This document shows positions 18,368-39,945 of a DNA stretch of 64,000 nt, in pieces; position 1 is the first letter of the stretch, and each line of letters begins with the position of its first letter. Below the pieces are notes generated by a model. That model saw only the letters and a list, made by a program, of their open reading frames with translations. It was not told the origin of the DNA and made no database searches. The position numbers and the translations under genes were made by a program. The DNA comes from Vibrio sp. B1FLJ16 (GTDB taxonomy: Bacteria > Pseudomonadota > Gammaproteobacteria > Enterobacterales > Vibrionaceae): assembly GCF_905175385.1 (NCBI RefSeq), contig NZ_HG992749.1:1364001-1428000 (forward strand). Direction: 5' to 3'.

Positions 18368-19390
18368 TTATTTTCTACTCACCAGATGGTTAGAGGCAGC
18401 AGCAGCCAAAAGTGCCGCGCCAATTACCAAGGTTTGGTAGTACGCAGGAACCAGCGTCAGCATACCGACTGTAAGAGTCATAATGATCAGGGCACCAATG
18501 AATGATCGCAGTACTTTTCCTTCCCCGCCGCTGAATGCTGTGCCACCAATCAGTACCACAAGAATAGCGGTTAGCTCCATACCATCTCCAGAGAGAGGAT
18601 CACCAAGGGACATAAAGCTAGAGCGTGCGATTCCAGCCAGTGCAGCTGTTGCTCCAACAATCGCATACAGAGCAAATACCACTAAACCCGTTTTAATTCC
18701 CGATAGTTTAGCTGCGGTAGGGTTACCACCCGTTGCGGCCGCGTACTTACCCAACAAAGAACGGTTTTGCAGGATGATGAGTAATGCCGTGACACCAACC
18801 GCGACCCAAAACGCCATTGGTAAGCCAAGCAGTACAGCATCGCGCCCATAGTCATTAAACCAGGCTGGCATTTTCATATCGCCCATAGATTTGATTGCAG
18901 ATACGCCATCTTGTACTAGAAGCAGGGCAACGCCTTTATAAAGGCTCAACGTAATCAAGGTAGCAATAACGGGAGTGATGTTAAATTTGACCACCAGAAG
19001 TCCGTTTATTGCACCTAACAGCACGCCGCAAAACACGGTAATCGAAAATGCAGCCCAGAACGGCACACCATTGATCGCAAGCATGGCATAAATCACGGCG
19101 GTTAACCCCATGGTGCTACCGACGGAAAGATCGATGTACCCAGACACCATGAGTAACGTGAACGCCCCGGCTAAAACAAGCAAAGGAGCGGAAACGCGCA
19201 GGATATTGATGATATTTTTCTTGTAAAGAAAGTTACCGCGTTCAAAAAGCGCATACTGATCTAAGTTAACGCTGCTCAGGAACACGACGATAGCTGCAAG
19301 CACAAAGTAGATGTAATAGTTACGAATAAACTCTGCGGCTTGGTTACCGAATGTTGGTGATGAGTTGAGTGATTTAGTAGTTTCAGACAT
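18368..19390 (-). CDS. Ribose-type ABC transporter permease (second subunit)
   Basis: A 340-residue polytopic inner-membrane protein of the RbsC/BPD_transp_2 family (usual 320-345). The hallmark cytoplasmic loop reads AAATGGNPTAAKLSGIKTGL (about residues 219-238), and GGTAFSGGEGKVLRSFIGAL lies near the C-terminus. It is last in a minus-strand operon of binding protein, ATPase, permease and permease, and forms the channel with the preceding permease. It is intact, unlike its partner. It imports an unidentified sugar or polyol. Confidence 0.9.
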   Translation of the reverse strand: MSETTKSLNSSPTFGNQAAEFIRNYYIYFVLAAIVVFLSSVNLDQYALFERGNFLYKKNIINILRVSAPLLVLAGAFTLLMVSGYIDLSVGSTMGLTAVIYAMLAINGVPFWAAFSITVFCGVLLGAINGLLVVKFNITPVIATLITLSLYKGVALLLVQDGVSAIKSMGDMKMPAWFNDYGRDAVLLGLPMAFWVAVGVTALLIILQNRSLLGKYAAATGGNPTAAKLSGIKTGLVVFALYAIVGATAALAGIARSSFMSLGDPLSGDGMELTAILVVLIGGTAFSGGEGKVLRSFIGALIIMTLTVGMLTLVPAYYQTLVIGAALLAAAASNHLVSRK

Positions 19391-19404
19391 AACTTACACC
19401 TTGA

Positions 19405-20434
19405 TTATTTACTTCGTAAGGACAGAGCCCAAGTTTGGGCGGTAATTGCCAAGAACACAGCTACGGCTCTGAGAATGAATTGCCAATCCGGAGAGAGCGT
19501 TAAACCGGTTGCGGCAGATGTCACAACAGCAAGAATAATCGCACCGAAGAACATCCCGATTACAGAGCCGAATCCTCCGGCAATGGCAATACCACCAAGT
19601 AGTGCGATGACTAACGCATCAAACTCCATCAGAAGACCACGATTAGAGAAACCAGACTTGAATTCTGAAGAGAGAAGAATGCCGACTATTCCCGCCACTA
19701 ACGCGCTAAACAAATAGAGATAGGTAACGTGTTTGGCGTTATCAATACCAGATAGCTTAGCTGCCTCTGGGTTAGCTCCAATCCAATAAGTGATGCGCCC
19801 AAACACGGTCTTACGTTCAATAAAGATGGCGATAAAGAAAAGGATCAGCATGAATAAGACCGGGAACTGCATTGAAGTGCCAAATACTTTCAGGTTACCT
19901 AAGATGCCAAACTCAGCAGGCAGGTTCGTGTTTCTCTGTGAGCCTTCAGTGATAACCTGAGCAATACCGCGCGCGACCATCATAGTGCCGAGGGTGACTA
20001 TGATTGACGGAATACGAAACTTAACGACGAAAAGCGCATTCAACCCACCTATCGCAAGCGCACCTAATAAAGCACCTGAAACGGCTAGCCAATATGGTAA
20101 CCCGAGTCCACTCGAAAGGGAGCTTGCTCCTGTTGCTGCTTGAGCAAACCACACGGATAAAACCCCTGATAAGGCAACAATACCGCCGACAGAGAGATCA
20201 AAATTGCCTGAGATAAGAAGGAATGAAACCCCGATGCCTAATGAGATGACGGCCCAGTTATTGGTCACCAGGTTCATCATGTTCTGAACCTGAAAAAAGT
20301 TCGGCACGAATACAGAGGCAACCAAAAAAAAGCCCGATGGCAACGATGGCAACCAGTGATGTGATGTACATTTGATCACTCAGGCGTCGGTATTCGACAG
20401 GTGAGTTATTTGGTTTGACTGACGTGTTCATCAT
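19405..20434 (-). pseudogene. Ribose-type ABC transporter permease (first subunit), frameshifted at an A8/T8 tract
   Basis: The natural start is the ATG at 20434, overlapping the ATPase stop by four bases. It reads MMNTSVKPNNSPVEYRRL and on to VAIVAIGLF. At the eight-base run 20324-20331 the frame is lost; with seven bases it continues as LVASVFVPNFFQVQNMMN into a full permease of about 342 residues, the same size as its partner. The conserved GANPEAAKLSGIDNA loop is intact downstream. A shorter frame beginning with GTG at 20379 covers the rest but has a nonsense N-terminus (MIKCTSHHWLPSL), so I do not accept it. As sequenced the importer would lack one permease. Confidence 0.85.
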
Positions 20435-21939
20435 ACTACTTCCTCTAGACCACCCGTAGCGGCGTTCAAAATAAAGTTGGTATCAACATCCGGCCCGTTG
20501 TTAATTTCCGATACCAGAGAGCCGTCATAAAGTAAGAAAATACGGTCACAGACTCCCAGTATCTCCTCTAATTCGGTGGAGAAAACCGCGACAGAGTTAC
20601 CTTCGTTAGCCAAGTCTTTTACGAGGTCATAGATCTCTTTTTTCGCGCCAACATCGACACCGCGAGTCGGTTCATCCAGCAGCAGAAGCTTAGCTTGAGA
20701 GAATAAACACTTAGCAATGACGATTTTTTGCTGGTTACCGCCAGACAGTTTTTCTGTGTGCTTTTCTATTGAACTGGTCGCAATCGAGAGCTTTTCCACG
20801 TAGTCAATAGCAGCGTTGAGTTCATCTTTCTCTCTGAAAACGCCAAAATCAGACATTCTGGGCAGGTTCATTACCGGAATGTTTTCCCGGATAGTCAGGC
20901 TGGTAAATAAGCCTTGAGTTCTACGTTCTTCAGGCACTAAAGCGATACCTGCAGCGATGGCTTCGCGTGGAGACTTTCCGACGTCTTTTCCGTTGAGCCG
21001 GATAGTGCCTGATGCTTTATCGGCCCCGAAGATAGCGCGGGCAATTTCTGTTTTTCCTGCGCCAACCAGGCCATAGAAACCCACGATTTCGCCTTTCTTA
21101 ATATCGAAGGAGACGTTTTTAAGTCGATGGTTAGTCAAGCGTTGAACCGACAAAAAGACCTCGTCTGTGATTGCATCGCGAGGAGAGTAATCATGCTTGA
21201 TGCTGCGGCCAATCATCATGTTGATAAGCTCAGCGCGGCCATCGATCTCTGCCATTGGTTTGGTCGCGATGTGTTTACCATCGCGCATTACGGTAACGCG
21301 ATCACCTAACGAAAGGATCTCATCCAGTTTATGAGAGATATAAATCACGGTAACGTTTTGATCTTGTAAGCGTCGAATTACCGTAAATAGTCGTTCGACT
21401 TCTCGCTCTGATAGCGCAGCGGTTGGCTCATCCATTATGATGACATTCGCACCGGAAGAGGCTGCTCTGGCTATTTCGACAATCTGTTTTTGCGCTACAC
21501 CCAGTGTCGATACTCTGGCGTGAGGATTGATAGAAGGCTCAATAGTAGCAAGTGTTTTCATTGCTCTCTCTTCTAAATCGGAACCCACTAAAAAGCCGAA
21601 CCAGCTCTTCTCCATGCCCAAGGTTAAGTTTTCAAGAACAGTCAGTTCATCGACGACGTGCAGTTCCTGAAAAAGGGTAGCGATACCCGACTCACGTGCA
21701 GACTGGGTGCCATTTGGCGTGTATACCTTGCCATTAACTTTCATCGTCCCTTGCGTCGGTTGGATAGCGCCGGTAATCATTTTCACTAGTGTTGATTTTC
21801 CCGCCCCATTTTCGCCAATCAAACAATGGACAGTACCGGACTCGATTGCAAAGCTGACGTCATTAACAGCCCTTACGCCCGGGTAATCTTTGATAAGCCC
21901 CTCAATCGAAAGGACGGGTGTTGTATTCTGACTATTCAA
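20431..21939 (-). CDS. Ribose-type ABC transporter ATP-binding protein (two ATPase domains)
   Basis: A 502-residue tandem ATPase of the RbsA/MglA/LsrA type, energising sugar import from the cytoplasmic face. The first domain has Walker A GENGAGKSTLVKM (about residues 43-55), the signature STLGVAQKQIVEIARA and Walker B VIIMDEPTAALSEREVE. The second has a degenerate Walker A (GLVGAGKTEIARAIFG), signature LSGGNQQKIVIAKCL and LLLLDEPTRGVDVGAKKEIY. It overlaps the next permease by four bases (ATGA), so the two are coupled. The operon reads away from the SorC-type regulator. Confidence 0.95.
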   Translation of the reverse strand: MNSQNTTPVLSIEGLIKDYPGVRAVNDVSFAIESGTVHCLIGENGAGKSTLVKMITGAIQPTQGTMKVNGKVYTPNGTQSARESGIATLFQELHVVDELTVLENLTLGMEKSWFGFLVGSDLEERAMKTLATIEPSINPHARVSTLGVAQKQIVEIARAASSGANVIIMDEPTAALSEREVERLFTVIRRLQDQNVTVIYISHKLDEILSLGDRVTVMRDGKHIATKPMAEIDGRAELINMMIGRSIKHDYSPRDAITDEVFLSVQRLTNHRLKNVSFDIKKGEIVGFYGLVGAGKTEIARAIFGADKASGTIRLNGKDVGKSPREAIAAGIALVPEERRTQGLFTSLTIRENIPVMNLPRMSDFGVFREKDELNAAIDYVEKLSIATSSIEKHTEKLSGGNQQKIVIAKCLFSQAKLLLLDEPTRGVDVGAKKEIYDLVKDLANEGNSVAVFSTELEEILGVCDRIFLLYDGSLVSEINNGPDVDTNFILNAATGGLEEVV

Positions 21940-22022
21940 GATGATCTCTCCTAATCACTGAGATTTTGAATATGTTTCTTAGGAGGAGAGGTCAGCGGTG
22001 GCTTTGCTGACCTCACATAGGG

Positions 22023-23048
22023 TTAGTTGCTGAACTGATTTTTTAGCCATTGCTCTGCGTCAGGCTTAGGCATTGACCAGTAAGAAATCGTGTATGCGTC
22101 GTAGAAGAACTCTTGTGCTTCATCGCTTCTTGGTGCAACTTTCTTATTGATTACATCCATAACCAAATCGATGCGTCCACGAGCGGTTTCGATTGGCGGC
22201 AGACCCATTGACACTTTCAGGCTTGATTCAGGATCGTAAATCTGACCAAATTCCACTGAGTCGAAGTCCACGCTGGCAACAATCTCAGTGACTGGTTTGC
22301 CGTTTTTGAACTTACCGCGACCTAGTTGGTTCAGACCAGCCATAGTGCCAACAGTCAGGTTTGAAGCTTCTGAGTATATTAGGTTCACCTCAGGTTGCTG
22401 AGTAAGAAGGTCTACGATGATCTGTTTCGCGGCTTCTTGACCACCACTGGCATCCAGAGCGCCCAAGTTTTTTGCATTTGGCGCGACAGAAAGAACGCCT
22501 TGAGCAAATGGGTTAGTACGGCCAGAGGTAACTTCAGTGTGGTTTGGCCAGCCTAGTTGCACCATCACAATAGGTTTATTCGGGTTTGCTGCCATCCACT
22601 CTTTAGCCATCTGTGCACCCATGTCGAACGATACGGTTGCTTCATCACTTCGGGCCGTTGGGATACCAGTGTCGGTAATAGGGCTAAAGAATGAGGTCAT
22701 CGCGATGTTTTCTTCCAGCGCTTCCATTACACCCGGCGTTGCCGCTTCTCCATCCCAAATATGCAGAGATGCGCCGTCAAATGCGCCCGCCGCTACCTGG
22801 TCAACGTTTTGAGTCATGACCGCTGAGTCAGCTTTGCCATCAAAAATGACCACCTCTGCACCATACTTCTCTTTTGCATAACGTTTCGCCTCTGTCGCTT
22901 GTGACTGATGGAAAACGTTTGACAAGTCTGAAACGAAAAACGCAATTCTTTCATTAGCTTGTACTGTGGCAGCGAGGCTTGAAGCGACAATAATACTCGT
23001 AGCAATAAGTCCTTTGTTAAACAGATTCTTTAAAGTCACTGACTTCAT
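22023..23048 (-). CDS. Periplasmic sugar-binding protein (ABC importer)
   Basis: A 341-residue type I periplasmic binding protein of the ribose/LacI-like fold, with a signal peptide (KNLFNKGLIATSIIVASSLA, cleavage near TVQA-NE). The mature part opens RIAFFVSDLSNVFHQSQATE, typical for sugar binders. The start at 23048 is chosen because GGAGAA lies just before it; an ATG four codons upstream overlaps that ribosome-binding site. It is first in the importer operon and divergent from the SorC regulator. Ligand unknown. Confidence 0.92.
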   Translation of the reverse strand: MKSVTLKNLFNKGLIATSIIVASSLAATVQANERIAFFVSDLSNVFHQSQATEAKRYAKEKYGAEVVIFDGKADSAVMTQNVDQVAAGAFDGASLHIWDGEAATPGVMEALEENIAMTSFFSPITDTGIPTARSDEATVSFDMGAQMAKEWMAANPNKPIVMVQLGWPNHTEVTSGRTNPFAQGVLSVAPNAKNLGALDASGGQEAAKQIIVDLLTQQPEVNLIYSEASNLTVGTMAGLNQLGRGKFKNGKPVTEIVASVDFDSVEFGQIYDPESSLKVSMGLPPIETARGRIDLVMDVINKKVAPRSDEAQEFFYDAYTISYWSMPKPDAEQWLKNQFSN

Positions 23049-23170
23049 AATATTCTCCATTTTCTATTTGGCATTTACTCGTCGTCTTTGAAGCAACAGC
23101 TGCTTTTCTTCCGTTAATTAACGTTCTTATATAGCTGACAAAAGCAGTACAACACGTCCTTCTCATTGGA

Positions 23171-23474: not shown

Positions 23475-24434
23475 ATGACGATGAGCGAGCGTGACGACAT
23501 ATTGAGACAAACCGCCAAGATCCTGACCTTACGTTATATGGAGAATCGCAGTCAGTCGGATATTGCTAAACAGCTTGGGTTGTCTACGGCGAAAGTGAAT
23601 CGCGTTATCAGGCAAGCTCACGATGATGGCTTGGTTGAGATAACACTGAAGCTGCCTCAAGAGAGAATGCACAATCTCGAACAACACCTTATCAAATTGT
23701 TCGGTTTAAAGACTGCGGTCATTCAGCCCAGCCTGAGTAAAGATGACTCGGTGATAACGCAGCAAGTCGCACTAGCCGCTGGAGAGCTTTTAATCGAAAC
23801 CGTCAAACCAGACAGCATTATCTGTATTAGCGGTGGTAAAACCATGGCTCAGATTGTAGAGCAAGTTAAACCAATGAGCTTCCCCAAAGTACGTGTCGTG
23901 CCTGCGACTGGGGGTATCCAGGGGCACCACTATACAGACGTAAATTATCTAGCTTCGAAACTGGCAGAGAAACTCGGAGGAACAAGTACTCAACTACACG
24001 CTCCGTTATTTGTCGATACGGATGAACAACGCACTCTGTTAATGGAGATGCGCAGTGTTAAAGAGGTGCTTGATCTGGCGAGAAATGCGGATATCGCGCT
24101 GGTAGGTATAGGTTCAGTGGCGAATGAAAGCGACAGTTATTACGACTTGCGGACGCTTAGTGGTCATCAGACGGAAGCGTTGATGAGTACGCAATGCCAG
24201 GGGGAGATCCTTGCTCATCTTTACGACGACTACGGCAGAACGTGTGCAGATCATTTAAACCGCAAGCTAATTGGATTGAATCTAAAAGAACTTGGCAACG
24301 TTGAACACAGTATTGGCGTTGCCGCAACTCACTCAAAAGTGTCCGCGATGCTGGCAGCGCTGCGAGGTGGACTAATTAATGGCTTAGTCTCTGATGAAGA
24401 CACAGTGGCAAGTGTTTTGGAACAAGCAGAATAG
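23475..24434 (+). CDS. SorC/DeoR-type sugar-sensing transcriptional regulator
   Basis: A 319-residue regulator of the SorC family (LsrR, EryD and B. subtilis DeoR are members). The N-terminal helix-turn-helix is YMENRSQSDIAKQLGLSTAK then VNRVIRQAHDDGLVEI (about residues 19-54). The rest is the sugar-phosphate-binding domain with VRVVPATGGIQGHHYTDVNY (about 139-158) and IALVGIGSV. It heads the catabolic genes on the plus strand, faces the importer operon, and sits among repeated palindromes, so it is the obvious local repressor. The effector is probably a phosphorylated intermediate made by the FGGY kinase. Confidence 0.9.
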   Translation: MTMSERDDILRQTAKILTLRYMENRSQSDIAKQLGLSTAKVNRVIRQAHDDGLVEITLKLPQERMHNLEQHLIKLFGLKTAVIQPSLSKDDSVITQQVALAAGELLIETVKPDSIICISGGKTMAQIVEQVKPMSFPKVRVVPATGGIQGHHYTDVNYLASKLAEKLGGTSTQLHAPLFVDTDEQRTLLMEMRSVKEVLDLARNADIALVGIGSVANESDSYYDLRTLSGHQTEALMSTQCQGEILAHLYDDYGRTCADHLNRKLIGLNLKELGNVEHSIGVAATHSKVSAMLAALRGGLINGLVSDEDTVASVLEQAE

Positions 24435-24443
24435 GGAACAATT

Positions 24444-25430
24444 ATGCAAACAAGAGAAATTGGTAACTCAGGTATTCAGGCGTCGGTTATCGGGTTAGGA
24501 ACATGGGCAATGGGTGGTTGGATGTGGGGTGGCACAGATGAAAGAGCCTCCATTGAAGCGATTCATGCGTCACTGGATAGTGGTGTTTCTCTTATTGATA
24601 CCGCCCCAGCGTATGGCTTGGGTGTCTCAGAAGAGATTGTAGGTAAAGCGATAAAAGGTAAGCGAGACAAAGTGGTACTCGCAACCAAATGTGGATTAGT
24701 TTGGCATACCAATAAAGGTAATCACTTTTTCGATGAAAATGGGAAACCGGTACATCGTTACTTGGGCGCAGACGCGATTGAATACGAAGTTGAGCAGAGT
24801 TTAAAACGTCTGCAAACCGACTATATCGATTTGTACATCACGCACTGGCAAGATCCAACTACCCCGATTAGTGAAACCATGCAAGCACTGGAATCGTTAA
24901 AACAGGCCGGGAAAATCCGGGCAATAGGCATCAGTAATGCGAGCAAAGAGGAACTGGCACAGTATCAGGCTGTAGGGACGGTCGATGCGGTACAGGAAAA
25001 ATACAACTTGATTGAGCGTCAATTGGAGCAAACTTTGCTGCCAGCGACGATAGCATCAAATGTATCGTGTTTGAGTTATTCATCGTTGGCGATGGGCTTG
25101 TTAAGCGGAAGAGTGAGCCCAGAGCGTATCTTCACTGGCGACGACCAGCGAATTACTGACCCTATGTTTACGGTTAAAAATCGCCAATGGGTTCAGAAGT
25201 TCTGCCAGTCTATTGCGCCGATTGCACAGCAAAAAGGCATAACGGTTGCTCAGCTAGTCATCGCCGCGACCTTACAACAGCCGGGAATTACCTATGCGCT
25301 TTGCGGAGCACGCAATAGTGAACAAGCGATTGAAAACGCTGCGGCAGGTAATGTTCAGTTATCACAAGAAGATGTCGCTTTCATTGACGCTAAGTCTCGT
25401 GAGTTTTTTGGCCAATTAGAGTTGGCATAA
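24444..25430 (+). CDS. Aldo/keto reductase
   Basis: A 328-residue NAD(P)H-dependent oxidoreductase with the (beta/alpha)8 AKR fold. The catalytic tetrad region is visible: DTAPAYGLGVSEEIVGKAIK (Asp, Tyr), VVLATKCGLVWH (Lys) and YITHWQDP (His). The N-terminus MQTREIGNSGIQASVIGLGTW is typical of the YajO/Tas/IolS branch. It starts nine bases after the regulator stop behind AGGGAA, so it is in the same transcript. In the cluster it probably reduces or oxidises the sugar or the aldehyde released by the aldolase. Confidence 0.9.
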   Translation: MQTREIGNSGIQASVIGLGTWAMGGWMWGGTDERASIEAIHASLDSGVSLIDTAPAYGLGVSEEIVGKAIKGKRDKVVLATKCGLVWHTNKGNHFFDENGKPVHRYLGADAIEYEVEQSLKRLQTDYIDLYITHWQDPTTPISETMQALESLKQAGKIRAIGISNASKEELAQYQAVGTVDAVQEKYNLIERQLEQTLLPATIASNVSCLSYSSLAMGLLSGRVSPERIFTGDDQRITDPMFTVKNRQWVQKFCQSIAPIAQQKGITVAQLVIAATLQQPGITYALCGARNSEQAIENAAAGNVQLSQEDVAFIDAKSREFFGQLELA

Positions 25431-25471
25431 ACCGTAAGATTAAGAAGGCGTTAACTGGCTGGCAGGGAGCA

Positions 25472-27247
25472 ATGATGGATAATCACACGACACGGTTTGG
25501 CCACCTAAAGGATCAAAACGATTTCGAAGTCGTCGTTATTGGTGGCGGAATCAATGGTATTAGCGTCTTTCGGGAACTCGCACTCCAAGGTGTGAATGTC
25601 TTGTTGGTCGATAAGGACGATTTTTGCTCTAAAGCAAGTGCAGCGCCTTCGCGCATGATCCATGGTGGATTACGTTACTTGGAAAATGGTGAATTTGGGT
25701 TAGTAAAAGAAGCGCTTTTTGAGCGAAATCGTTTATTAAGTAATGCGCCACATCTGGTTGCTCCGCTTGAAACGACGATTCCGATTTTCTCCACGTGGTC
25801 GGGGCTTTTCGACGGCATGTTTAAGTTTCTAGGCGTCAAAGATCGTCCGTCTCAGCGTGGATCTGTGGTGATAAAACTTGGTCTTAGCCTTTACGACTGG
25901 TTTACAAAGCGTGACCAAATGATGCCAAAGCACAAAATGCACTCAGCTAATGATACGCATCAGCGCTGGCCTTTAATGGGAAAGCAAGTTAAACACAGTG
26001 CAACCTATTTTGATGCGTGGATCCGTTCTCCGGAACGTTTAGCGATGGAGCTGATTCAAGAGGGAGTAAACGCTGGTGGTGTGGCGTTGAATTACACCAA
26101 AGTCACGCATCTCGAAAATGGAGAACTGGTATTAGCTAGCCAAACAAGTGAGCAAGTAGTAAGGGTTAAAACCCAGCATATTGTGAATGCAACTGGAGCC
26201 TGGGTTGATTTCACGAACGGTTTATTAACGGCACCAAGTCAATATATGCAAGGAACTAAAGGTTCGCACATTATTGTTGAAAATGAGCAATTGTTGTCCG
26301 AGCTAGATGGCAACATGCTGTTTTATGAGAACAGTGAAGGTCGTGTCTGCATACTGTTCCCGTACTTCGGTAAGGTGCTGATTGGTTCAACTGATATTCC
26401 TGTGAGTGATCCTGAGACGGTTCGCTGTACGGACGAAGAGATCCAATACCTGTTGGAATCTCTCAGAGGAATATTGCCGGGGCTCGATATTAGCGAAGAC
26501 CAAATTGTGTATCAGTTTTGCGGGGTTAGACCTTTACCTTCCGTCCATACTTCGACAACAGGTCAGATACCTCGCAGCCATTCAATTAAACGAAATCGAG
26601 TTGAGTCTACAGACATCTATTCACTGATTGGCGGTAAGTGGACGACGTTTCGCGCCTTCGGCGAAGAGGTGGCTGACGAAATACTTGTTTCTCTCGGCAA
26701 GGAAAGAATTTGCAGCACTAAGCAGAAGCCGATAGGTGGTGGTGTGAGATATCCCGTGAGCAAAGTAGACCGACAATCATATATCAATACGTTAGCTCAT
26801 CAATACCACACTTATTCAAAGGCACAGATAGAAGCCTGGTTTATGCGCTACGGCACGCGATGCGAAGCATTGCTTGAGTGGCTGGTGGATTATCATGATT
26901 CGGAACTCTCGTCACTCAGCTACTACACCAAAGGCGAATTGAAGTACATCCTGAAGCATGAATATGTCGAAACCACACTGGATATTTTATTACGTCGTAC
27001 CTCTATCGCGATTGAAGGCAAACTTAACAACTCTGTTTTTGAAGAGATATCGACGTTGGTTGCTCAACATTTTAACTGGAGCGATTCAGAGCAGGTAACA
27101 GACCGAACTAATACCAAGCAAGTACTATCGCGTTTCCATGGTGTGGAACTCGATATTGCGCCGGTAGCTAATCAACTAAAGCGCACCGCAACGATTACGG
27201 ATAAAAACCAATCATTAAATGGAGAAGAGTATGTATTTAACCAGTAA
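25472..27247 (+). CDS. GlpD/EryB-like FAD-dependent polyol-phosphate dehydrogenase
   Basis: A 591-residue flavoprotein of the glycerol-3-phosphate dehydrogenase family. FAD-binding glycines are in VVVIGGGINGISVFRELALQ (about residues 20-39); SRMIHGGLRYLENGEFGLVK (about 66-84) is the canonical GlpD/GlpA stretch; GGKWTTFRAFGEEVAD lies before the C-terminal domain. These enzymes are usually membrane-associated and pass electrons to quinone. Genome copies of true glpD lie elsewhere in vibrios, and the neighbours here suggest a different polyol phosphate (EryB, for example, oxidises erythritol phosphate). Its end overlaps the aldolase start by 17 bases. Confidence 0.85.
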   Translation: MMDNHTTRFGHLKDQNDFEVVVIGGGINGISVFRELALQGVNVLLVDKDDFCSKASAAPSRMIHGGLRYLENGEFGLVKEALFERNRLLSNAPHLVAPLETTIPIFSTWSGLFDGMFKFLGVKDRPSQRGSVVIKLGLSLYDWFTKRDQMMPKHKMHSANDTHQRWPLMGKQVKHSATYFDAWIRSPERLAMELIQEGVNAGGVALNYTKVTHLENGELVLASQTSEQVVRVKTQHIVNATGAWVDFTNGLLTAPSQYMQGTKGSHIIVENEQLLSELDGNMLFYENSEGRVCILFPYFGKVLIGSTDIPVSDPETVRCTDEEIQYLLESLRGILPGLDISEDQIVYQFCGVRPLPSVHTSTTGQIPRSHSIKRNRVESTDIYSLIGGKWTTFRAFGEEVADEILVSLGKERICSTKQKPIGGGVRYPVSKVDRQSYINTLAHQYHTYSKAQIEAWFMRYGTRCEALLEWLVDYHDSELSSLSYYTKGELKYILKHEYVETTLDILLRRTSIAIEGKLNNSVFEEISTLVAQHFNWSDSEQVTDRTNTKQVLSRFHGVELDIAPVANQLKRTATITDKNQSLNGEEYVFNQ

Positions 27248-28076: not shown

Positions 28077-28091
28077 AAACTGGGAGGGAGT

Positions 28092-29665: not shown

Positions 29666-29686
29666 GATATAAATTTGAGGTGATTT

Positions 29687-30844: not shown

Positions 30845-30905
30845 CGATAAATCACAACTTAGCTAAAACAAAATTCAGCCCTGAATATAATCCAAGGAAG
30901 AAAGT

Positions 30906-32429: not shown

Positions 32430-32591
32430 CGCATTGACGTGAGGAGGTAAGTGGTAGGTTTGCTTTTGATGTTTGTTCATTTAGCGTAGGGACTAATTGG
32501 ATACGCGATCCTGTCCTCTTCATGTTTTTTAATGGTTCACTTCTCTCCGAGGAATGAGCTTTTCATTACCACAAAAAACAAGGAGAAGGCG

Positions 32592-35500
32592 ATGATAGCC
32601 ACCAGCCTAACACAGTCCTTAGAGACTTGGCGTCGCCCTGTTGTTAATAGTATTCTAGCGGGAATGTATGGAGTCTCGCTGAGTACTACTGCGTATGCTG
32701 CGCAAGGCCCTGGTCTGGGTAACCTGAGTTATAGTTCGAGCGAAGCGTTTACTCATGTATCCAGCCCCCTCATTGATGATTCAACCAATTTCTTACCTCC
32801 TGATTACCCTAGCACGAAACATTACGGCGTAAATGTAATGACCATGCTAAATGGTTATATGGTTGGTGTTTTTGCGCCTGATAGTGGGGGAGGCCCCGGC
32901 GGATGGATTGCTGTCGATGTATCTAACCCTACAGCGATGCAACTTGTTAAAACAGTTTATGAGCCAGATCTGTCAAATACCAATCGGACAGGTGATGGCT
33001 TGAGAACGTCTGAGTTTAGAGAACCTCATTCGTTTGGTCTTGGCGAGAATAATACCATTGCAATCCAAACAGGTAAGGGCATTGAAATCTGGGATTGGTC
33101 CGATGTTAACAATCCAGTTCGTTTGTCTAAGCTCGCTATTTCCGGTGTTAATTTCGGTGACTATAACAATGTCTCCTGGCAACTCTTTTGGCAAGCTCCG
33201 TACTTGTATGTTGCAAGAGGCAATGCAGGTTTATCCATTGTCGACACCAGTGATATGAGTAACCCTACTTTGGTTAAAACAGTTCCGAACTCAGCACTTG
33301 GCGGATTTAACGTAGGACCGATATTTGCGCTCGGAAATCGAATGTTTATCTCCAGTATGGAAGGTACGGCAGGTTTTTCGCTCCTCAATATTGATGACCC
33401 TACCAACCCGACTCTCGTGAAAACAGTGAATAGCCTACCGGAGAAATACTACGCGTCATGTTGGGACGGTAAATATGCCTATTTTGGCGCGCGAAGTACT
33501 ACTGATTCGCTGCGGATATACGATACAACGACCACGCCAATGATGCTGGTTAATGAGTCATTAACTGGCTTTGAGAACCTATATTGTAACGTGCAAGACA
33601 ATAAACTCTTTCTTGGAAATCAAGACGATATTGCAGTGCTAGATATAAGCGATATTAACAATATTCAAGAGATAGGCAGAAGCTCTCTTAACGCGACCAG
33701 TACCAATACCGATCATGGTCAGGTTTTCCCATTCGGCAACTTGGTCTGGGTGGGTAATGACCACGGGTCAGGCAGTGGTCTTATTGCGCACCAAAGTAGT
33801 CCGGATATGGTACCACCTTACATTTCTGCAACTGACCCTGCGATAGAATCTACGTTACAGCCGCTGACAACACGTGTTGGTATTGCACTTTCTGACAGTG
33901 TGTTGATGGAGTCTGTGAACAGCACTACGTTTACGGTTACTAAATTGGGAAGCAGTACGCCACTTCAAGGGGAGTACAGTGTGAACCTAGGATTTATCCA
34001 TTTCACACCTGCTCAAGATCTTGAAGCAGACAGTATTTATCAAGTGGTATTAGAGGGAATAGAAGACTTCTCAGGCAACCCAATGGCTCGAACGGAGTAT
34101 CGATTTGCCACTGGTTCTCAAGCTGGGCATGACATCAGTGTCACCGCAAGTGATAAAGTGACATTGGGCAGCAGTATTAACGTTAGTGCCACTAGCTCTC
34201 CAATGTTAGGCGGTACTATGGAGTACTCTTGGAACTTCGGTGATGGCACTGCTTCAACGGCTTTTTCATCCAATAGCAGTGCAAGTCACATCTACAGCGC
34301 CCCCAACAATTGGTCCGCGGTCGTCACAGTACGTGAAACAACAATTGATGGTGTGTTTGAAAGCAGTAAGTCGATGCCAATAACGGTATATAGACAACCT
34401 ACGGCCGTTGCTCCGACAGCATCTTCAACAATTATTGAATCCGGCGGTCAAGTCATAGTAGTTAATGAAGACAACGATTCAGTCAGTGCCATCAGTAATA
34501 GCGCGCCATACAACAAACTTTGGGAAACCGCAGTAGGTGATCAGCCCAGAACCTTGGCCGCAGCTCCTGATGGAAATGTGTGGGTTGTGAATCAGGCTGA
34601 CTCTACCATTTCTATTCTCTCCAGCGTAGGACAATTGGTCGAGACAATTTATCTTCCAAGAGCTTCGCAACCCTATGGAATCGCGTTTTCTCCTGATGGA
34701 AATGACGTGTTCGTTTCATTGCAGGCGAGTGGTCAGCTGGTGAAAATTGATCCTGGCTCGCGAAATATTGTGGCGACAACCGATGTCGGGTATAGCGCTC
34801 GTGGCCTAGCGATAGACAGTTCTTCATCGCAAGTACTGGTGACCCGATTTATTTCTCCTCAATCCTATGCTGAAGTCGTCGCAGTTGATGCCGGTAGTAT
34901 GTCCATCGACACCAACTATCAAATTGCAAAGGATACGATAACTATTGATGGGCCAGACCGCAGTCGCGGAGTGGCGAACTACTTAAGTTCAGTTGTCATT
35001 TCCCCCGATGGATACAGCGCTTGGGTCCCATCAAACAAGGCCAACGTGGATCGCGGTTCTTACTTAGAGGGTGATGACGCACTAAAGCTAACCTTCGAAA
35101 CCACAATCCGGGCGGTAGTTAATCGGTTAGATTTGACTGCTCAAGCAGTTCAGTCAAACGCTTTAGACATTGACAACCGTGCACAACCTAAAGCGGTCGT
35201 GTTTAGTGATATTGGCGACTTAGCATTCATTGCCTTAGAAGGACAAAACAGCATCGAGATTCGAAGTACCTACACTTCAAATCGAGCAGGAGAAATTTTT
35301 GATACTGGTTTAGCACCTCGCGGATTAGTGTTGTCGGGCAATACGCTCTTTGTACACAATTTTATGTCCCGAACGATTTCTGTTCATGATGTCGATGAGT
35401 TCTTACAAAGCAGGGGCAATATTTCTACGGTGGCGCAAATTGGAGTTGTCGCGAATGAAGTACTTCACCCGAGGGTGTTGAAAGGAAAGCAGATATTCTA

Positions 35501-37151
35501 CAACGCAGCTGACGCCAGAATGACTCAAGACGGTTATATATCGTGTGCTAGCTGTCATGCGGACGGAGACAGCGACCACCGAGTCTGGGACTTTAGTGAC
35601 CGAGGTGAAGGGTTAAGAAATACGATTTCATTATTGGGCAAAACAGGAACCGGAAACGGCCGAGTTCACTGGACGGCAAACTTCGATGAAATTCAGGATT
35701 TCGAAAACGATATTCGTTATGCATTTGGTGGTCGAGGCTTTATGGTTGATGCTCTGTTCAATCTAACTGAGAATCCGTTAGGCACGGCTAAATCTGGAAA
35801 AAGTGAAGACCTGGATAACCTTTCATTCTATGTAAGTAGTCTGAACAAGTTTCCACAAAGTCCAAATCGAGACAACACGGGGTCTCTAACTGCGGAAGCT
35901 CAAACGGGTCAGGCTCTGTTTGCTGCCAAAGGATGTGATTCATGTCATTCGGGAGTTTATTACACTGACATGCAGCGACATGATGTCGGAACGATGGATG
36001 CATCTTCTGGCCTTGGTAGCGGAACGTCTTTATCTGGTATAGGGTTCGATACACCAAGTCTAATTGGTCTTTGGGCAAGTGCGCCGTACTTGCATAATGG
36101 CCAAGCGGCTACGTTAGATGACGTGTTGCAAACTGGCTCGCAGCATACGGTGTCTAGTAGTAGCGAAAGAGCTGCATTGGTGGCCTATCTTGAGCAAATT
36201 GAGTATGAAGGACCTGCAATTGTGGTAGCCGATCCACCACAAGCAACGAGCTACACTTACCTTAGTGACTTGAGCGAAACCTATTCTACCAATGGTTGGG
36301 GGCCTATTGAGAAAGATACCAGTGTTGGTGAAAGCGCTGCCGGAGATGGAGTTACTATCTCTATTGGCGGGAGTGAGTTTAGCAAGGGGCTCGGTGTTCA
36401 TGCTTATTCCGAAGTGATTTATGACTTAACTGGTGGAAACTATGACCAATTTACCGCGTTCATCGGTGTCGATGATGAGAGCGGTAGCGCAGGCTCTGTG
36501 GTGTTTGAGGTCTGGCTAGATGGTGTGATGGCTTATCAGAGCGGTACGTTAGTAGGAAATGATGTGGCGGAGTATGTCTCGGTCAATATTAGTGACACTG
36601 TACAAGAGCTCAAACTAGTCGTCACTGATGGCGGTGATGGCGTTGGTAATGACCATGGTTCTTGGGGTGATGCAAAACTTCGCACGCCAAGCCAGGGAGG
36701 TTCTTCTGCGGTTCCTGGGCTGTTCTACGGAACCCTTTCAGGAGATATTAACGTGACGGATCCAAACCCTAAAACATTGATCACGACGAGCTTGAACGAA
36801 ACGGAAGATTCGATAGCGGGCAATACTACGGAAGTTTATACAGGCTATATCTATGACGCTGATGGGCAGATTTCGTTCAGTGAGAACAATGACGATAAGA
36901 CTCGCCTTTGGATTGATGGTCAGCTTGTATTAAGTAGTGATTTATGGAGTGACCGTGTGTCTACAGCTAATCTCAACTTGTCACCAGGATGGCATCAGTT
37001 CGAACTCAGATTAAGTAACGGTAACGGTGGTAGTGGTGCACATACCGGATTTGCGTTTGCTTATGATCCAAATGGTGGCACGAACTGGGTTCATCCATCA
37101 GACAATGGAACAGGAAACTTGTTTATGACTGAAGATCCGGGAAGTAACTAA
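32592..37151 (+). CDS. Large secreted multidomain protein: beta-propellers, PKD, di-heme peroxidase-like domain, NPCBM and PA14
   Basis: 1519 residues with a signal peptide (SILAGMYGVSLSTTAYA, cleavage near residue 37). Domains in order, rough residues: LVIVD-type propeller 60-400; SbsA-like Ig 406-510; PKD 512-600 (YSWNFGDGTAS); YVTN propeller 606-936; MauG/cytochrome-c-peroxidase-like di-heme domain 945-1210 with two CxxCH sites (C985-H989, C1115-H1119) and SAPYLHNGQAATLDDVL; NPCBM carbohydrate-binding 1218-1366; PA14 1373-1505. AAGGAG fixes the start at 32592. It follows the aldehyde dehydrogenase by 162 bases on the same strand with no visible terminator between. An extracellular redox enzyme on a glycan is the best guess. 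Confidence 0.8.
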   Translation: MIATSLTQSLETWRRPVVNSILAGMYGVSLSTTAYAAQGPGLGNLSYSSSEAFTHVSSPLIDDSTNFLPPDYPSTKHYGVNVMTMLNGYMVGVFAPDSGGGPGGWIAVDVSNPTAMQLVKTVYEPDLSNTNRTGDGLRTSEFREPHSFGLGENNTIAIQTGKGIEIWDWSDVNNPVRLSKLAISGVNFGDYNNVSWQLFWQAPYLYVARGNAGLSIVDTSDMSNPTLVKTVPNSALGGFNVGPIFALGNRMFISSMEGTAGFSLLNIDDPTNPTLVKTVNSLPEKYYASCWDGKYAYFGARSTTDSLRIYDTTTTPMMLVNESLTGFENLYCNVQDNKLFLGNQDDIAVLDISDINNIQEIGRSSLNATSTNTDHGQVFPFGNLVWVGNDHGSGSGLIAHQSSPDMVPPYISATDPAIESTLQPLTTRVGIALSDSVLMESVNSTTFTVTKLGSSTPLQGEYSVNLGFIHFTPAQDLEADSIYQVVLEGIEDFSGNPMARTEYRFATGSQAGHDISVTASDKVTLGSSINVSATSSPMLGGTMEYSWNFGDGTASTAFSSNSSASHIYSAPNNWSAVVTVRETTIDGVFESSKSMPITVYRQPTAVAPTASSTIIESGGQVIVVNEDNDSVSAISNSAPYNKLWETAVGDQPRTLAAAPDGNVWVVNQADSTISILSSVGQLVETIYLPRASQPYGIAFSPDGNDVFVSLQASGQLVKIDPGSRNIVATTDVGYSARGLAIDSSSSQVLVTRFISPQSYAEVVAVDAGSMSIDTNYQIAKDTITIDGPDRSRGVANYLSSVVISPDGYSAWVPSNKANVDRGSYLEGDDALKLTFETTIRAVVNRLDLTAQAVQSNALDIDNRAQPKAVVFSDIGDLAFIALEGQNSIEIRSTYTSNRAGEIFDTGLAPRGLVLSGNTLFVHNFMSRTISVHDVDEFLQSRGNISTVAQIGVVANEVLHPRVLKGKQIFYNAADARMTQDGYISCASCHADGDSDHRVWDFSDRGEGLRNTISLLGKTGTGNGRVHWTANFDEIQDFENDIRYAFGGRGFMVDALFNLTENPLGTAKSGKSEDLDNLSFYVSSLNKFPQSPNRDNTGSLTAEAQTGQALFAAKGCDSCHSGVYYTDMQRHDVGTMDASSGLGSGTSLSGIGFDTPSLIGLWASAPYLHNGQAATLDDVLQTGSQHTVSSSSERAALVAYLEQIEYEGPAIVVADPPQATSYTYLSDLSETYSTNGWGPIEKDTSVGESAAGDGVTISIGGSEFSKGLGVHAYSEVIYDLTGGNYDQFTAFIGVDDESGSAGSVVFEVWLDGVMAYQSGTLVGNDVAEYVSVNISDTVQELKLVVTDGGDGVGNDHGSWGDAKLRTPSQGGSSAVPGLFYGTLSGDINVTDPNPKTLITTSLNETEDSIAGNTTEVYTGYIYDADGQISFSENNDDKTRLWIDGQLVLSSDLWSDRVSTANLNLSPGWHQFELRLSNGNGGSGAHTGFAFAYDPNGGTNWVHPSDNGTGNLFMTEDPGSN

Positions 37152-37215
37152 GTCAAAGTTCGTTGTTTCGTTCGGAGTTAGAAGTAAGAGGGACACTATA
37201 GACTCCCCCTACTTA

Positions 37216-37241: not shown

Positions 37242-37339
37242 GTCTTTATGTGTATTTCAACTCGTGCAGTTGCGCTTACCGGTTAAAAGCAATAGGCTAC
37301 GTTTAGCCGTATTAAACTTTTCAGGAAGCAAGACGTTCT

Positions 37340-38125
37340 ATGTCCACCACTCAATCGCCAAGTTCAAGTAAAGGTTCGACTCTTGATCGTGTACTGCAAG
37401 TATTGCTGATTGTCGCCAAAAGCCGCGGGCAAATGAATCGAGAGTCAATCGCAGAACAACTTTCAATGCCGATTGCTTCCGCTAACAAGTTAATCACTCA
37501 ACTGGTCTCGCTTGGTTATTTGCAAGAAAACATAGTTCTCCACGTCATAGCAGGTCCAAAACTTAAGTCACTGGCACACGATATCCTCAAGAACCAACGT
37601 TTCTCTGATATGCGTACTTCAGTTTTGCGCGCGCTTTCCGATAAGATAGGAGAAACTTGTGGCATCTCGGTTCCGAATGGGATTGAGATGATTTACTTTG
37701 AACGAGTGAACTGTAACTGGCCGTTACAAATCAACCTGGCAGAAGGCAGTAGTGCACCTATCGCTGCAAGCGCATCCGGAAAACTCTACCTTTCGACACT
37801 TGATGAGAACATCAGAGAAAATGTAATCCAGCATATGGGGCTTACGGAATACACTCCGCAGACTATTACGCATGAAAGGTTATTTCTGGAAGAGTTACGC
37901 AGGATACAAGATCAAGGATTCGGTGAAGACAATGAAGAGTTTATTGACGGAATGGTGGCAATATCAGTCCCGATTCGCTCAAACGGGGTAGATTTTGGAT
38001 ATCTGTTTTGTCACGCACCAAGCTTTAGAACTTCACTTGAAAAGTTAAAAACCTATATTCCGGACATGCAATCTGCAGCCGAAGAGATATTGAACTTTAC
38101 CATTGAAGAATTAGGCTTAAGCTAA
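37340..38125 (+). CDS. IclR-family transcriptional regulator (1)
   Basis: A 261-residue regulator with an N-terminal winged helix (about residues 15-75: TLDRVLQVLLIVAKSRGQMN, ESIAEQLSMPIASANKLITQ) and a C-terminal IclR effector domain (about 85-255) carrying the family stretch APIAASASGKLYLSTL and EEFIDGMVAISVPI. It is clearly related to the IclR gene that faces it 22 bases away; both share NWPLQI and ASASGKL, so they arose by duplication. It probably controls the neighbouring lactonase, the di-heme gene or the sugar cluster. Effector unknown. Confidence 0.9.
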   Translation: MSTTQSPSSSKGSTLDRVLQVLLIVAKSRGQMNRESIAEQLSMPIASANKLITQLVSLGYLQENIVLHVIAGPKLKSLAHDILKNQRFSDMRTSVLRALSDKIGETCGISVPNGIEMIYFERVNCNWPLQINLAEGSSAPIAASASGKLYLSTLDENIRENVIQHMGLTEYTPQTITHERLFLEELRRIQDQGFGEDNEEFIDGMVAISVPIRSNGVDFGYLFCHAPSFRTSLEKLKTYIPDMQSAAEEILNFTIEELGLS

Positions 38126-38147
38126 TTCAAATCGCTATGTTTATTAT

Positions 38148-38945
38148 TTAATGTTTTGGAAACTGCGCCAACATATCTCTGTAAACCATCTCTAGATTTA
38201 CCTGCGCTGAACGTAGGATAGGGAGATAGTTTTCTAAGTCTGAGACGCTTTTGCGGCTTTTAGGACAATGACAAAACAGAGCAGCTAAAAAGTTTCCTTC
38301 CTGATCATAGAGTGGGAGTGCGATAGCTGCCATTCCATCAATGAACTCCTCGTCGTCAATGCTGTAGCCTCGTTTTTTAATTAGGCTGAGTTCTTTCTTA
38401 AGCGTTTGTAAATCGGTAATGGTATTTTTGGCGTGTTGGATCAGTTCCATTTTGCTTAATACGCGGCGCAATTGTGTTGTAGAAAGGGTACTTAAAAACA
38501 GTTTTCCACTCGCCGACGCCCATAGTGGAATAGGAAAACCGACAGGAATAACAATTTGTAGCGGCCAGTTTGTTTGGATTCGATCGTAGTAAACCATGTG
38601 ATCACTTGGCGTATCGTTAGCTAACGCAAGTCCACAAGTTTCTTTTAGCTTCCTTGATAAGCCATGCAGGATTGCCTGGCGCTGGAGTTTATGTTGATTG
38701 GTCCAGTTTACATCTAAAGCGATAGAAACCAGCTGAGCACCAGGGTAGAAATGGCCACGCTCATCTGTCTGGACATATTCTGCCTCTTCTAGCTGTTGGA
38801 GTAGACGATGGCAGGTAGGTTTAGGGATGCCTGATTCGAAAATAATGTCGGAAGCCGAAACTGGGCTTTTAGATTGGCCTACTCTTTGGATTACATCAAT
38901 GAGACGATCTACTGAGTTTATTTTTTCCGACACCTTGAACCTCAT
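38148..38945 (-). CDS. IclR-family transcriptional regulator (2)
   Basis: A 265-residue paralogue of the convergent IclR gene. The winged helix is VDRLIDVIQRVGQSKSPVSA and GIPKPTCHRLLQQLEEAEYV (about residues 12-60), then the effector domain with PIPLWASASGKLFLSTL and DDEEFIDGMAAIALPLYD. It reads away from the lactonase gene, which lies upstream on the same strand with only 58 bases between them, so both may be in one transcript. A small palindrome AACTAATTGGTTAGTT (38960-38975) lies just upstream of the start and may be an operator. Confidence 0.9.
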   Translation of the reverse strand: MRFKVSEKINSVDRLIDVIQRVGQSKSPVSASDIIFESGIPKPTCHRLLQQLEEAEYVQTDERGHFYPGAQLVSIALDVNWTNQHKLQRQAILHGLSRKLKETCGLALANDTPSDHMVYYDRIQTNWPLQIVIPVGFPIPLWASASGKLFLSTLSTTQLRRVLSKMELIQHAKNTITDLQTLKKELSLIKKRGYSIDDEEFIDGMAAIALPLYDQEGNFLAALFCHCPKSRKSVSDLENYLPILRSAQVNLEMVYRDMLAQFPKH

Positions 38946-39003
38946 TGATAACAGCGCGTAACTAATTGGTTAGTTGTAAACCATAAGACGTTATATTCCC
39001 AAA

Positions 39004-39945
39004 CTATTTCGCGACTTTCAATAAGCTCTGTGATTCATTGGCGTGACTGAGTATTGGAATACTAGAGCTATCAACCAGTGATTCTGCTCGGCCTTGTGTA
39101 GGAGCGTCTAAAATGAATAGATTTCCAGATTGAGGGAACCGTTCTTTTTCCTCAGAGGTTAACTCGTAGTCTGCAGTAGCGACAAAAAGAGTCGTAAAAT
39201 TTTCACCGCCAAAAGTGCAGCGAGTGGCATGTTTTACTGGCAACTCTATTTGACCGAGTTTAGCCGGTTTTCCGATACTCTTTTTGTTGGGAGCGTAGAA
39301 TGAAACCATGCCGCAATCCCAATGACACACAAGTAGGTTACCTGAGTTATCCACCGTTAGCCCGTCAGGATAACCTTGCTGTGGTGTAAACTCTACAAAG
39401 ACCGATTTATCGATTATTATCGTCATCGAATCATCGAGTTGATACTCAATAACTTTTCTTTGAAACATGTTTGAGCAGTATGCGCGCTTTAACTCTGGAT
39501 TGAACGCTATTCCATTAGCCACACTAAAATTGTCGTCCATTTCAATGGCAAGACCGTTATCGAACTGGAATAGCTTTCCGTCCGGAGCCTCAAGATCTTC
39601 ACCATTCATTGAACCAAACCACAGCTTTCCATTCGGAGCGGTAACTGCATCGTTCAGATGAAGGTTGGAAGCCTTGGAGCATGGGTCGATGATGGGCACG
39701 TATTTATCAAAAAATGAAGAACAGTAGAAAAGCCCTTGTTTGCTTGCGCAGAGCCAACCGTTGTTATCACATCGAGCGATAGCGGTGATATCAAATGGCA
39801 CGTTGAAGGTTTCTGTAGTGCGCCAACGCATGTTCAATTTGTAAATGGATTTACCCGCGGCGTCTATCCAAACCAGTTCTCTGCTCTCTGGTAACCAAAT
39901 TGGAGACTCACCAATCTTGCATACGATACTTTCCAAGGAATACAT
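39004..39945 (-). CDS. SMP-30/gluconolactonase family (regucalcin-like) protein
   Basis: A 313-residue six-bladed propeller hydrolase. The metal-site pattern is present: GESPIW (Glu at residue 13), SVANGIAFNPELKRAYCSNM (Asn) and QGYPDGLTVDNSGNLLVCHW (Asp). Such enzymes open sugar lactones to sugar acids, cytoplasmic here since no signal peptide is seen. With the IclR genes next door, it suggests oxidation of a sugar to a lactone somewhere in this island. Divergent from the amino-acid binding-protein gene. The ribosome-binding site is weak. Confidence 0.88.
   Translation of the reverse strand: MYSLESIVCKIGESPIWLPESRELVWIDAAGKSIYKLNMRWRTTETFNVPFDITAIARCDNNGWLCASKQGLFYCSSFFDKYVPIIDPCSKASNLHLNDAVTAPNGKLWFGSMNGEDLEAPDGKLFQFDNGLAIEMDDNFSVANGIAFNPELKRAYCSNMFQRKVIEYQLDDSMTIIIDKSVFVEFTPQQGYPDGLTVDNSGNLLVCHWDCGMVSFYAPNKKSIGKPAKLGQIELPVKHATRCTFGGENFTTLFVATADYELTSEEKERFPQSGNLFILDAPTQGRAESLVDSSSIPILSHANESQSLLKVAK

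What the first reader, a model, noticed from the sequence alone, without database searches (positions are those of the whole stretch)
18368..39945. Catabolic island with a mixed lsr/ery-like gene set and unknown substrate
A ribose-type importer, SorC regulator, FGGY kinase and DhnA/LsrF-type aldolase are the core parts of an lsr operon, yet there is also a GlpD-like dehydrogenase (as in erythritol operons), an aldo/keto reductase, an Fe-ADH, a CoA-acylating-type dehydrogenase, an SMP-30 lactonase and a huge secreted redox protein. No lsrG or ery isomerase was seen. A consistent reading is: polyol imported, phosphorylated, oxidised at the membrane, cleaved by the aldolase to DHAP plus an aldehyde, and the aldehyde reduced or turned into acyl-CoA. 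I know of no described pathway with this exact set.
Basis: partly seen in the sequence, partly recalled or inferred. Interest (0 to 1): 0.8.

Follow-up and report, generated by a model that had tools for sequence, protein, structure and literature searches.

The report
Conserved uncharacterised sugar-breakdown pathway in Vibrio
This stretch of a Vibrio-like genome carries a set of genes for importing and breaking down an unidentified sugar-like compound; the same five-gene core, in the same order, recurs in many marine and plant-root bacteria and I found no published account of what it does.

Summary
The gene set is real. The label "mixed lsr/ery" does not hold: trees place kinase, GlpD-like flavoprotein and regulator away from LsrK/LsrR and EryA/EryB/EryD. 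It is its own pathway. A fixed core (SorC regulator, aldo/keto reductase, GlpD-like dehydrogenase, DhnA-type aldolase, FGGY kinase) stands in that order in 78 of 80 loci examined (best 80 of 297 found), from Vibrionaceae to Rhizobiales, some on plasmids. Around it the importer and downstream enzymes are exchanged. Most marine loci add an iron alcohol dehydrogenase plus a CoA-acylating (methyl)malonate semialdehyde dehydrogenase, a pair also found in DMSP (dddD) clusters, where it is held to turn 3-hydroxypropionate into acetyl-CoA. Most rhizobial loci put a GMC flavoprotein after the kinase; proposed 3-hydroxypropionate dehydrogenases belong to that broad family. Best reading: the substrate is phosphorylated, oxidised next to the phosphate, and cleaved to dihydroxyacetone phosphate (DHAP) plus a three-carbon semialdehyde acid, probably malonate semialdehyde, which ends as acetyl-CoA. 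The DHAP half is well supported by fold and family; the semialdehyde half is inferred from gene linkage; substrate and the reductase's role are unknown. A new variant of a known kind.

The parts
18368..19390 (-). ABC importer permease (ribose family)
   Evidence: ncbifam ribose-type permease models, below cut-off; 83-84% in L052 and L054
19405..20379 (-). ABC importer permease
20431..21939 (-). ABC importer ATPase (AraG/RbsA type)
22023..23060 (-). periplasmic substrate-binding protein (Peripla_BP_4)
   Evidence: no close solved relative, best E 3e-6
23475..24434 (+). SorC/DeoR-type sugar-binding regulator (core gene 1)
   Evidence: PF04198; 30% LsrR, 29% EryD, cluster regulators apart from both, 97/97
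24444..25430 (+). aldo/keto reductase, YdjG/GSP69/IolS-like (core gene 2)
   Evidence: 62-72% in loci outside the close Vibrio group
25472..27247 (+). GlpD-like FAD dehydrogenase (core gene 3); overlaps the aldolase gene
27219..28076 (+). DhnA-type class I aldolase (core gene 4); Lys196 and Glu158 conserved at 99% or more in an alignment of 86
28092..29573 (+). FGGY carbohydrate kinase (core gene 5)
29687..30844 (+). iron-containing alcohol dehydrogenase, DddB-like by linkage (add-on)
30906..32429 (+). CoA-acylating malonate/methylmalonate semialdehyde dehydrogenase; Arg102 and Arg278 conserved
32532..37151 (+). 1539-aa protein with signal-like N-terminus: LVIVD repeats, Big_5, PKD, YncE-like propeller, two CxxCH (1005, 1135), NPCBM
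   Evidence: in 14 of 19 gamma loci
37340..38125 (+). IclR-family regulator
   Evidence: conserved in L034, L045
38148..38945 (-). IclR-family regulator
   Evidence: relatives (37-42%) beside Fe-ADH/MMSDH pairs in L136, L137, L140, L142
39004..39945 (-). SMP-30 / gluconolactonase-like protein
   Evidence: PF08450; directly after the kinase in L052, L054

Best explanation
A self-contained catabolic pathway. The ABC importer brings in a polyhydroxy compound. The FGGY kinase phosphorylates a terminal hydroxyl. The GlpD-like flavoprotein oxidises the carbon next to the phosphate-bearing carbon and passes electrons to quinone. The DhnA-type aldolase cleaves the keto-phosphate into DHAP and an aldehyde. 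In the marine version that aldehyde, or its reduced form, is a three-carbon beta acid, malonate semialdehyde or 3-hydroxypropionate (3HP), which Fe-ADH plus MMSDH carry to acetyl-CoA; rhizobia use a GMC flavoprotein and presumably a housekeeping MMSDH. If the aldehyde is malonate semialdehyde, the linear precursor would be a 5-keto-2-deoxyhexonate 6-phosphate, the kind of compound cleaved in inositol breakdown (recalled). The near-universal aldo/keto reductase either prepares the imported compound or reduces the released aldehyde. Shown: gene set, conserved order, families, linkage of the Fe-ADH/MMSDH pair to dddD clusters. Inferred: every reaction, its order and the substrate.
For: Core order in 78 of 80 loci. 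GlpD-like aligns along E. coli GlpD. Aldolase model (mean pLDDT 83.8) best matches ADH synthase with DHAP or fructose 1,6-bisphosphate bound, then LsrF and archaeal FBP aldolase. It passes the Cgl0159-like Pfam gathering score narrowly, 28.4 against 27. Fe-ADH relatives of 51-62% identity outside the cluster: of the 9 contexts I fetched, 8 have an MMSDH in the stretch, 3 also a dddD-like gene, 4 an IclR gene. All 6 outside hits are among the 9; of the many plasmid hits I fetched three of that identity. MMSDH keeps both arginines found in 17 of 17 family members aligned and lacking in 2 of 2 other window ALDHs. [quoted passage not shown] PMC12632250 (section 7 and passages): loss of a GMC oxidoreductase slows, and loss of a TIGR01722 dehydrogenase severely impairs or abolishes, growth on 3HP. 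Rhizobial GMC is 65% identical to a pRL11 GMC that follows a five-gene ABC transporter and precedes mmsB, much like the gmor arrangement.
Against: An aldolase that released malonate semialdehyde would not need a 3HP dehydrogenase, and a reductase plus a 3HP dehydrogenase would form a futile loop. The cluster Fe-ADHs branch apart from the dddD-linked ones, and the MMSDH is somewhat closer to MMSDHs of other contexts (63-64%) than to dddD-linked ones (60%). One of the 9 Fe-ADH contexts (L135) has no MMSDH, nor has a more distant one (L138, 44%), which I left out of the count. The GMC family is broad: 69 of 240 genomes of that class, with mixed contexts, and the cluster GMC is no closer to the dddD-linked one (57%) than to others (58-67%). 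13 of 61 non-gamma loci show no GMC; L052 and L054 show no Fe-ADH (L055 too, but its contig is 4.7 kb). To my knowledge 2-deoxyhexonates are not common natural compounds.
Confidence: 0.45

Rival explanations
1. Oxidoreductive route for an aldose or alditol: the AKR reduces an aldose to an alditol, the kinase and GlpD-like enzyme turn it into a ketose 1-phosphate, the aldolase gives DHAP plus glycolaldehyde, glyceraldehyde, acetaldehyde or lactaldehyde, and Fe-ADH reduces that aldehyde. This is.
For: An AKR is in 79 of 80 loci, the miss being the short contig L055; Fe-ADH also scores against lactaldehyde reductase models, below cut-off; kinase in a LyxK-containing clade.
Against: MMSDH keeps the two arginines that the two other window ALDHs tested lack, so it looks made for a semialdehyde acid. 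Weak: large pSymB deletions of S. meliloti (about 98% of the replicon in all) gave no growth loss that I could tie to this cluster; but I did not see which deletion covers it, and losses listed include dulcitol, glycerol, L-arabinose and myo-inositol, so these are not excluded (PMC4961836, section 8 and Table 2 passages; supplements not seen).
Confidence: 0.22
2. Aldonate route: AKR (or GMC) oxidises an aldose to a lactone, SMP-30 opens it, kinase phosphorylates the aldonate, GlpD-like oxidises C5, aldolase gives DHAP plus tartronate semialdehyde (from a hexonate).
For: SMP-30 gene follows the kinase in L052 and L054, follows the giant gene in L049, and lies beside the IclR pair in the window, L034 and L045.
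Against: SMP-30 in 6 of 19 gamma loci and 0 of 61 others within the fetched stretches; AKR nearest GSP69, IolS and YdjG, with L-galactose dehydrogenases much lower.
Confidence: 0.13
3. Two neighbouring pathways: the five-gene core and an independent 3HP module sit side by side.
For: The Fe-ADH/MMSDH/IclR module occurs without the core elsewhere (L137, L142); L052 and L054 have the core without it.
Against: 16 of 19 gamma loci have the Fe-ADH, divergently placed in V. penaeicida yet still adjacent.
Confidence: 0.12
4. A divergent autoinducer-2 (lsr) operon.
For: Importer, SorC-type regulator, FGGY kinase and DhnA aldolase are the lsr kinds of part.
Against: No LsrG; kinase and regulator apart from LsrK and LsrR; aldolase 27% to LsrF.
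Confidence: 0.04
5. A variant erythritol (ery) locus.
For: Kinase plus GlpD-like plus SorC-type regulator (one search shows the ery locus of pRL12, named so from its gene set).
Against: 27% to EryB; kinase apart from EryA; no EryC, TpiB or RpiB. R. johnstonii 3841 carries both clusters on one plasmid.
Confidence: 0.02

Closest known systems
DMSP dddBCDRT clusters, DddB/DddC part
   Same: Fe-ADH + CoA-acylating MMSDH pair (about 60% identity), sometimes an IclR gene nearby
   Different: No DddD or BCCT transporter; here joined to a kinase/GlpD/aldolase core
myo-inositol (iol) pathway, last steps
   Same: An aldolase giving DHAP plus malonate semialdehyde, then MMSDH to acetyl-CoA, is what I infer here (iol steps recalled)
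   Different: No inositol dehydrogenase, IolE, IolD, IolB or PfkB-type kinase among the genes identified in the stretch; the keto group would be made after phosphorylation by a flavoprotein
lsr (autoinducer-2) operon
   Same: ribose-type importer, SorC-type regulator, FGGY kinase, DhnA-family aldolase
   Different: No LsrG; has GlpD-like and AKR; kinase and regulator not in the Lsr clades
ery (erythritol) locus
   Same: FGGY kinase, GlpD-like dehydrogenase, SorC-type regulator
   Different: Aldolase instead of isomerases; proteins not of the Ery clades
R. johnstonii pRL12 cluster at 202.8-212.5 kb (GlpD2, FGGY2, class II aldolase, DeoR, ABC)
   Same: Nearest GlpD-like outside the cluster among those compared (41%); its kinase falls in the same 98/98 clade
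   Different: Class II aldolase, DeoR/GlpR regulator, no AKR; itself uncharacterised as far as I know

Membership tests
lsr operon | LsrK-type kinase | tested here: not met
   Kinase in clade with LyxK and FGGY2_Rj, 98/98, LsrK outside on a long branch
lsr operon | LsrR-type regulator | tested here: not met
   30% identity; cluster regulators apart from LsrR and EryD, 97/97
lsr operon | LsrG isomerase present | tested here: not met
   tblastn of E. coli LsrG against window 17000-44000, no match at E <= 1
lsr operon | LsrF-type thiolase | tested here: inconclusive
   Same DhnA fold, 27% identity, 100.1 bits against cut-off 297
ery locus | EryA kinase and EryB dehydrogenase | tested here: not met
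   Trees; 27% to EryB
ery locus | EryC/TpiB/RpiB isomerases | tested here: not met
   tblastn of the pRL12 proteins, no match at E <= 1 in window 17000-44000
DddB/DddC-type 3HP module | Fe-ADH of the MMSDH-linked subfamily next to an MMSDH | tested here: met
   29687-30844 and 30906-32429; 8 of the 9 outside contexts fetched for this Fe-ADH have an MMSDH
DddB/DddC-type 3HP module | Fe-ADH and MMSDH in the same clade as the dddD-linked ones | tested here: not met
   Cluster proteins branch apart from the dddD-linked ones in both trees
DddB/DddC-type 3HP module | Both arginines typical of MMSDH | tested here: met
   Arg102, Arg278 in 17 of 17 MMSDHs aligned, absent in 2 of 2 other window ALDHs; their role is recalled
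DddB/DddC-type 3HP module | Oxidises 3HP to malonate semialdehyde and on to acetyl-CoA | not testable with these tools
   Needs enzyme assays
DddA / Gmor (rhizobial GMC) | Closer to dddD-linked or gmor-like GMC than to other GMCs | tested here: inconclusive
   57% to dddD-linked, 65% to mmsB-linked, 67% to a GMC of another context; Gmor itself not available
iol pathway | Inositol dehydrogenase, IolE/D/B/C | tested here: not met
   None among the families found for the ORFs of the stretch; no direct search with Iol proteins was made

The most novel reading that the evidence does not exclude
A previously undescribed route that makes a 5-keto-2-deoxyhexonate 6-phosphate-type intermediate from a non-inositol deoxy sugar or sugar acid by 'phosphorylate first, then oxidise at the membrane', and splits it to DHAP and malonate semialdehyde, widespread in marine and rhizosphere bacteria, with a secreted haem protein that perhaps frees the substrate in the marine lineages.
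Probability: 0.2. Interest if true: 0.75.

Novelty: new variant of a known kind. Interest (0 to 1): 0.5.

Why it matters
A pathway whose core is kept intact across Alpha- and Gammaproteobacteria, while importer and end-handling enzymes were swapped, probably serves a substrate common to sea and soil. It is carried by well-studied symbionts (S. meliloti pSymB, R. johnstonii pRL12, R. etli p42b), so one growth screen could name the substrate. If the product is malonate semialdehyde, it ties an unknown carbohydrate to the 3-hydroxypropionate chemistry otherwise discussed for DMSP.

Tried and rejected
Rejected: lsr and ery membership. Weakened: 'rhizobial GMC is DddA'. After one search found a 57% GMC beside a dddD-like gene in L165 I took it as DddA-like; some searches showed that GMCs of 58-72% identity occur in many contexts, so it stays inconclusive. 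Also weakened: 'MMSDH is DddC': the tree puts it apart.

Led nowhere: solved relatives of the binding protein (only weak ribose-binding matches); guessed old locus tags of pRL12 and pSymB in papers (none; two papers, each with SMb20484 only, one of which, PMC4961836, I read in part); theme searches (16 papers listed, one read in passages, PMC3245297; none). The aldolase profile in a phylum sample matched in 10 of 398 genomes, two of the places being paralogous aldolases (51-53% to the window's) in L145 and L150; these sit in a sister set (Gfo/Idh, lyxose/mannose-isomerase-like, PfkB) that did not identify a substrate. The giant protein's partial model is poor in its haem part (mean pLDDT 61); its propeller matches known propellers, which says little about function.

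S. meliloti Biolog data (PMC4961836) give no phenotype that I can tie to the cluster. In strain 1021 (L035) the GlpD-like frame aligns unbroken over residues 12-559 of the window's protein, in strain ml56 (L036) it is split.

Full report
Setting. The window is G000:C1:1364001-1428000 of a 4.78-Mb, two-contig genome; among the named loci fetched its aldolase is closest to that of Vibrio pacinii (97%).

Anatomy. A four-gene ribose-type importer runs leftward (18368-23060). A rightward set follows: SorC-type regulator, AKR, GlpD-like, aldolase, FGGY kinase (23475-29573), then Fe-ADH, MMSDH and a 1539-aa protein with a signal-like N-terminus and two haem motifs (29687-37151), an IclR gene, and on the other strand a second IclR gene and an SMP-30 gene. 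GlpD-like and aldolase genes overlap by 29 bases; the other gaps between core genes are 9, 41 and 15 bases, so a shared transcript is likely (inference).

The core is a conserved unit. A tblastn search of plasmids with the aldolase gave 268 records, 180 of them at 60-80% identity, and R. etli p42b and R. johnstonii pRL12 show binding protein, ATPase, permease, regulator, AKR, GlpD-like, aldolase, kinase, GMC oxidoreductase in that order. A scan of one genome per species gave 297 loci that encode the aldolase; the best 80 were kept. 78 of these 80 have all five core genes in order on one strand. In the genus sample, 13 of 196 genomes including this one have a kinase relative of 46% identity or more (one, G059, in two pieces); 27 more passed the threshold with relatives of 29-34%, and the five of those put in the tree group with E. 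coli LyxK. The patchy distribution suggests horizontal transfer (inference).

What is swapped. Grouping the 80 loci by record title, I counted 19 as Gammaproteobacteria and 61 as others. Gamma: Fe-ADH 16, MMSDH 14 (L049 and L050 fell below the threshold because the gene is cut by the end of the fetched stretch; about 245 residues are there), giant protein 14, SMP-30 6, window-type binding protein 11, GMC 0. Others: GMC 48, MMSDH 2 (both Devosia), Fe-ADH 0. The window-type importer is shared at 76-84% with L052 (an Osedax symbiont) and L054 (an Oceanospirillaceae MAG), while the Photobacterium, Hahella and Rhizobiales loci I looked at use a different one.

Not lsr, not ery. On 33 kinases (19 cluster kinases, chosen for diversity) the cluster kinases, E. 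coli LyxK, its Vibrio relatives and FGGY2 of pRL12 form a 98/98 clade; LsrK, EryA, XylB, GlpK, FucK, RhaB and AraB lie outside, on long branches. The cluster kinases alone are not resolved as one clade. GlpD-like proteins plus GlpD2 of pRL12 separate from GlpD and EryB at 100/100; the cluster regulators separate from LsrR and EryD at 97/97. LsrG, EryC, TpiB and RpiB have no match in window 17000-44000.

Chemistry. A GlpD-type enzyme oxidises the carbon next to a phosphate-bearing carbon (recalled for GlpD and EryB). The product would be a keto-phosphate that a DHAP aldolase can cut. The aldolase keeps the Schiff-base lysine (196) and an acidic residue (158) in at least 99% of 86 aligned sequences (catalytic roles recalled or inferred). 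Its model is nearest to ADH synthase with DHAP or fructose bisphosphate bound, then LsrF and archaeal FBP aldolase. DHAP as one product is therefore well founded, though not shown.

The other fragment. Of nine contexts fetched for Fe-ADHs of 51-62% identity outside the cluster, eight have an MMSDH; three of these carry an 837-838-aa CoA transferase and a BCCT transporter, the dddBCDRT-type arrangement. I call that transferase DddD-like from size, two CaiB-type halves (tested for one) and neighbours; no curated DddD model was hit. PMC9327192 (passages read) states that DddA does the same reaction as DddB and that DddABC turn 3HP into malonate semialdehyde and acetyl-CoA. PMC12632250 (section 7 and passages read) reports that deletion of a GMC gene (gmor) slowed, and of dddC severely impaired (in light) or abolished (aerobic) growth on 3HP, with complementation. 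The rhizobial GMC is 65% identical to a pRL11 GMC that follows a five-gene ABC set and precedes mmsB, an arrangement like that described for gmor. I could not compare with Gmor itself. Two unrelated alcohol dehydrogenases with links to 3HP beside the same core is the main argument for a malonate semialdehyde / 3HP product. It is an argument from linkage only, and the GMC half is weak.

Open points. Why the AKR is nearly always there; whether the reductase and the 3HP dehydrogenase form a loop; what the secreted haem protein does; what the substrate is. The own genome holds three further MMSDH-like places of 48-59% identity (one with an internal stop), so the copy here is not the cell's only one.

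Judgement. That statement rests on searches of an open-licence library only; most subscription papers are not in it.

Noticed in passing
window 40062-42953: Glutamine/polar amino-acid type ABC importer right of the island; not seen beside the cluster in L034 or L045, so left out.
   Followed up: partly
window 53915-63237: Glutamine-synthetase-like gene, Peptidase_C26, HTH-cupin regulator, two aldehyde dehydrogenases, DAO oxidase, carbon-nitrogen hydrolase and agmatine-deiminase-like gene: looks like polyamine (putrescine/agmatine) breakdown.
   Followed up: no
L158:7766-12155 (pRL12 202765-207154): A sister set next to the ery locus: class II aldolase, GlpD-like (41% to the window's) and FGGY kinase with DeoR regulator and ABC importer; suggests a wider family of kinase/GlpD/aldolase pathways.
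   Followed up: partly
L145:9398-13030 and L150:6501-10187: Paralogous aldolase (51-53% to the window's) in a shared set with Gfo/Idh oxidoreductase, lyxose/mannose-isomerase-like protein and PfkB kinase (67%, 51% and 43% between the two loci).
   Followed up: partly
L137:6569-11506: Acinetobacter plasmid cassette GntP permease, Fe-ADH, MMSDH, IclR next to BREX genes: perhaps a mobile 3-hydroxypropionate cassette.
   Followed up: no
L036:10239-11884: In S. meliloti ml56 the GlpD-like gene of the cluster is split between two frames; unbroken over the aligned part in strain 1021.
   Followed up: partly
L147 (G565): A giant-protein relative (42%) next to a cluster-type aldolase (70%) in a more distant gammaproteobacterium; the rest of that locus was not resolved.
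   Followed up: no
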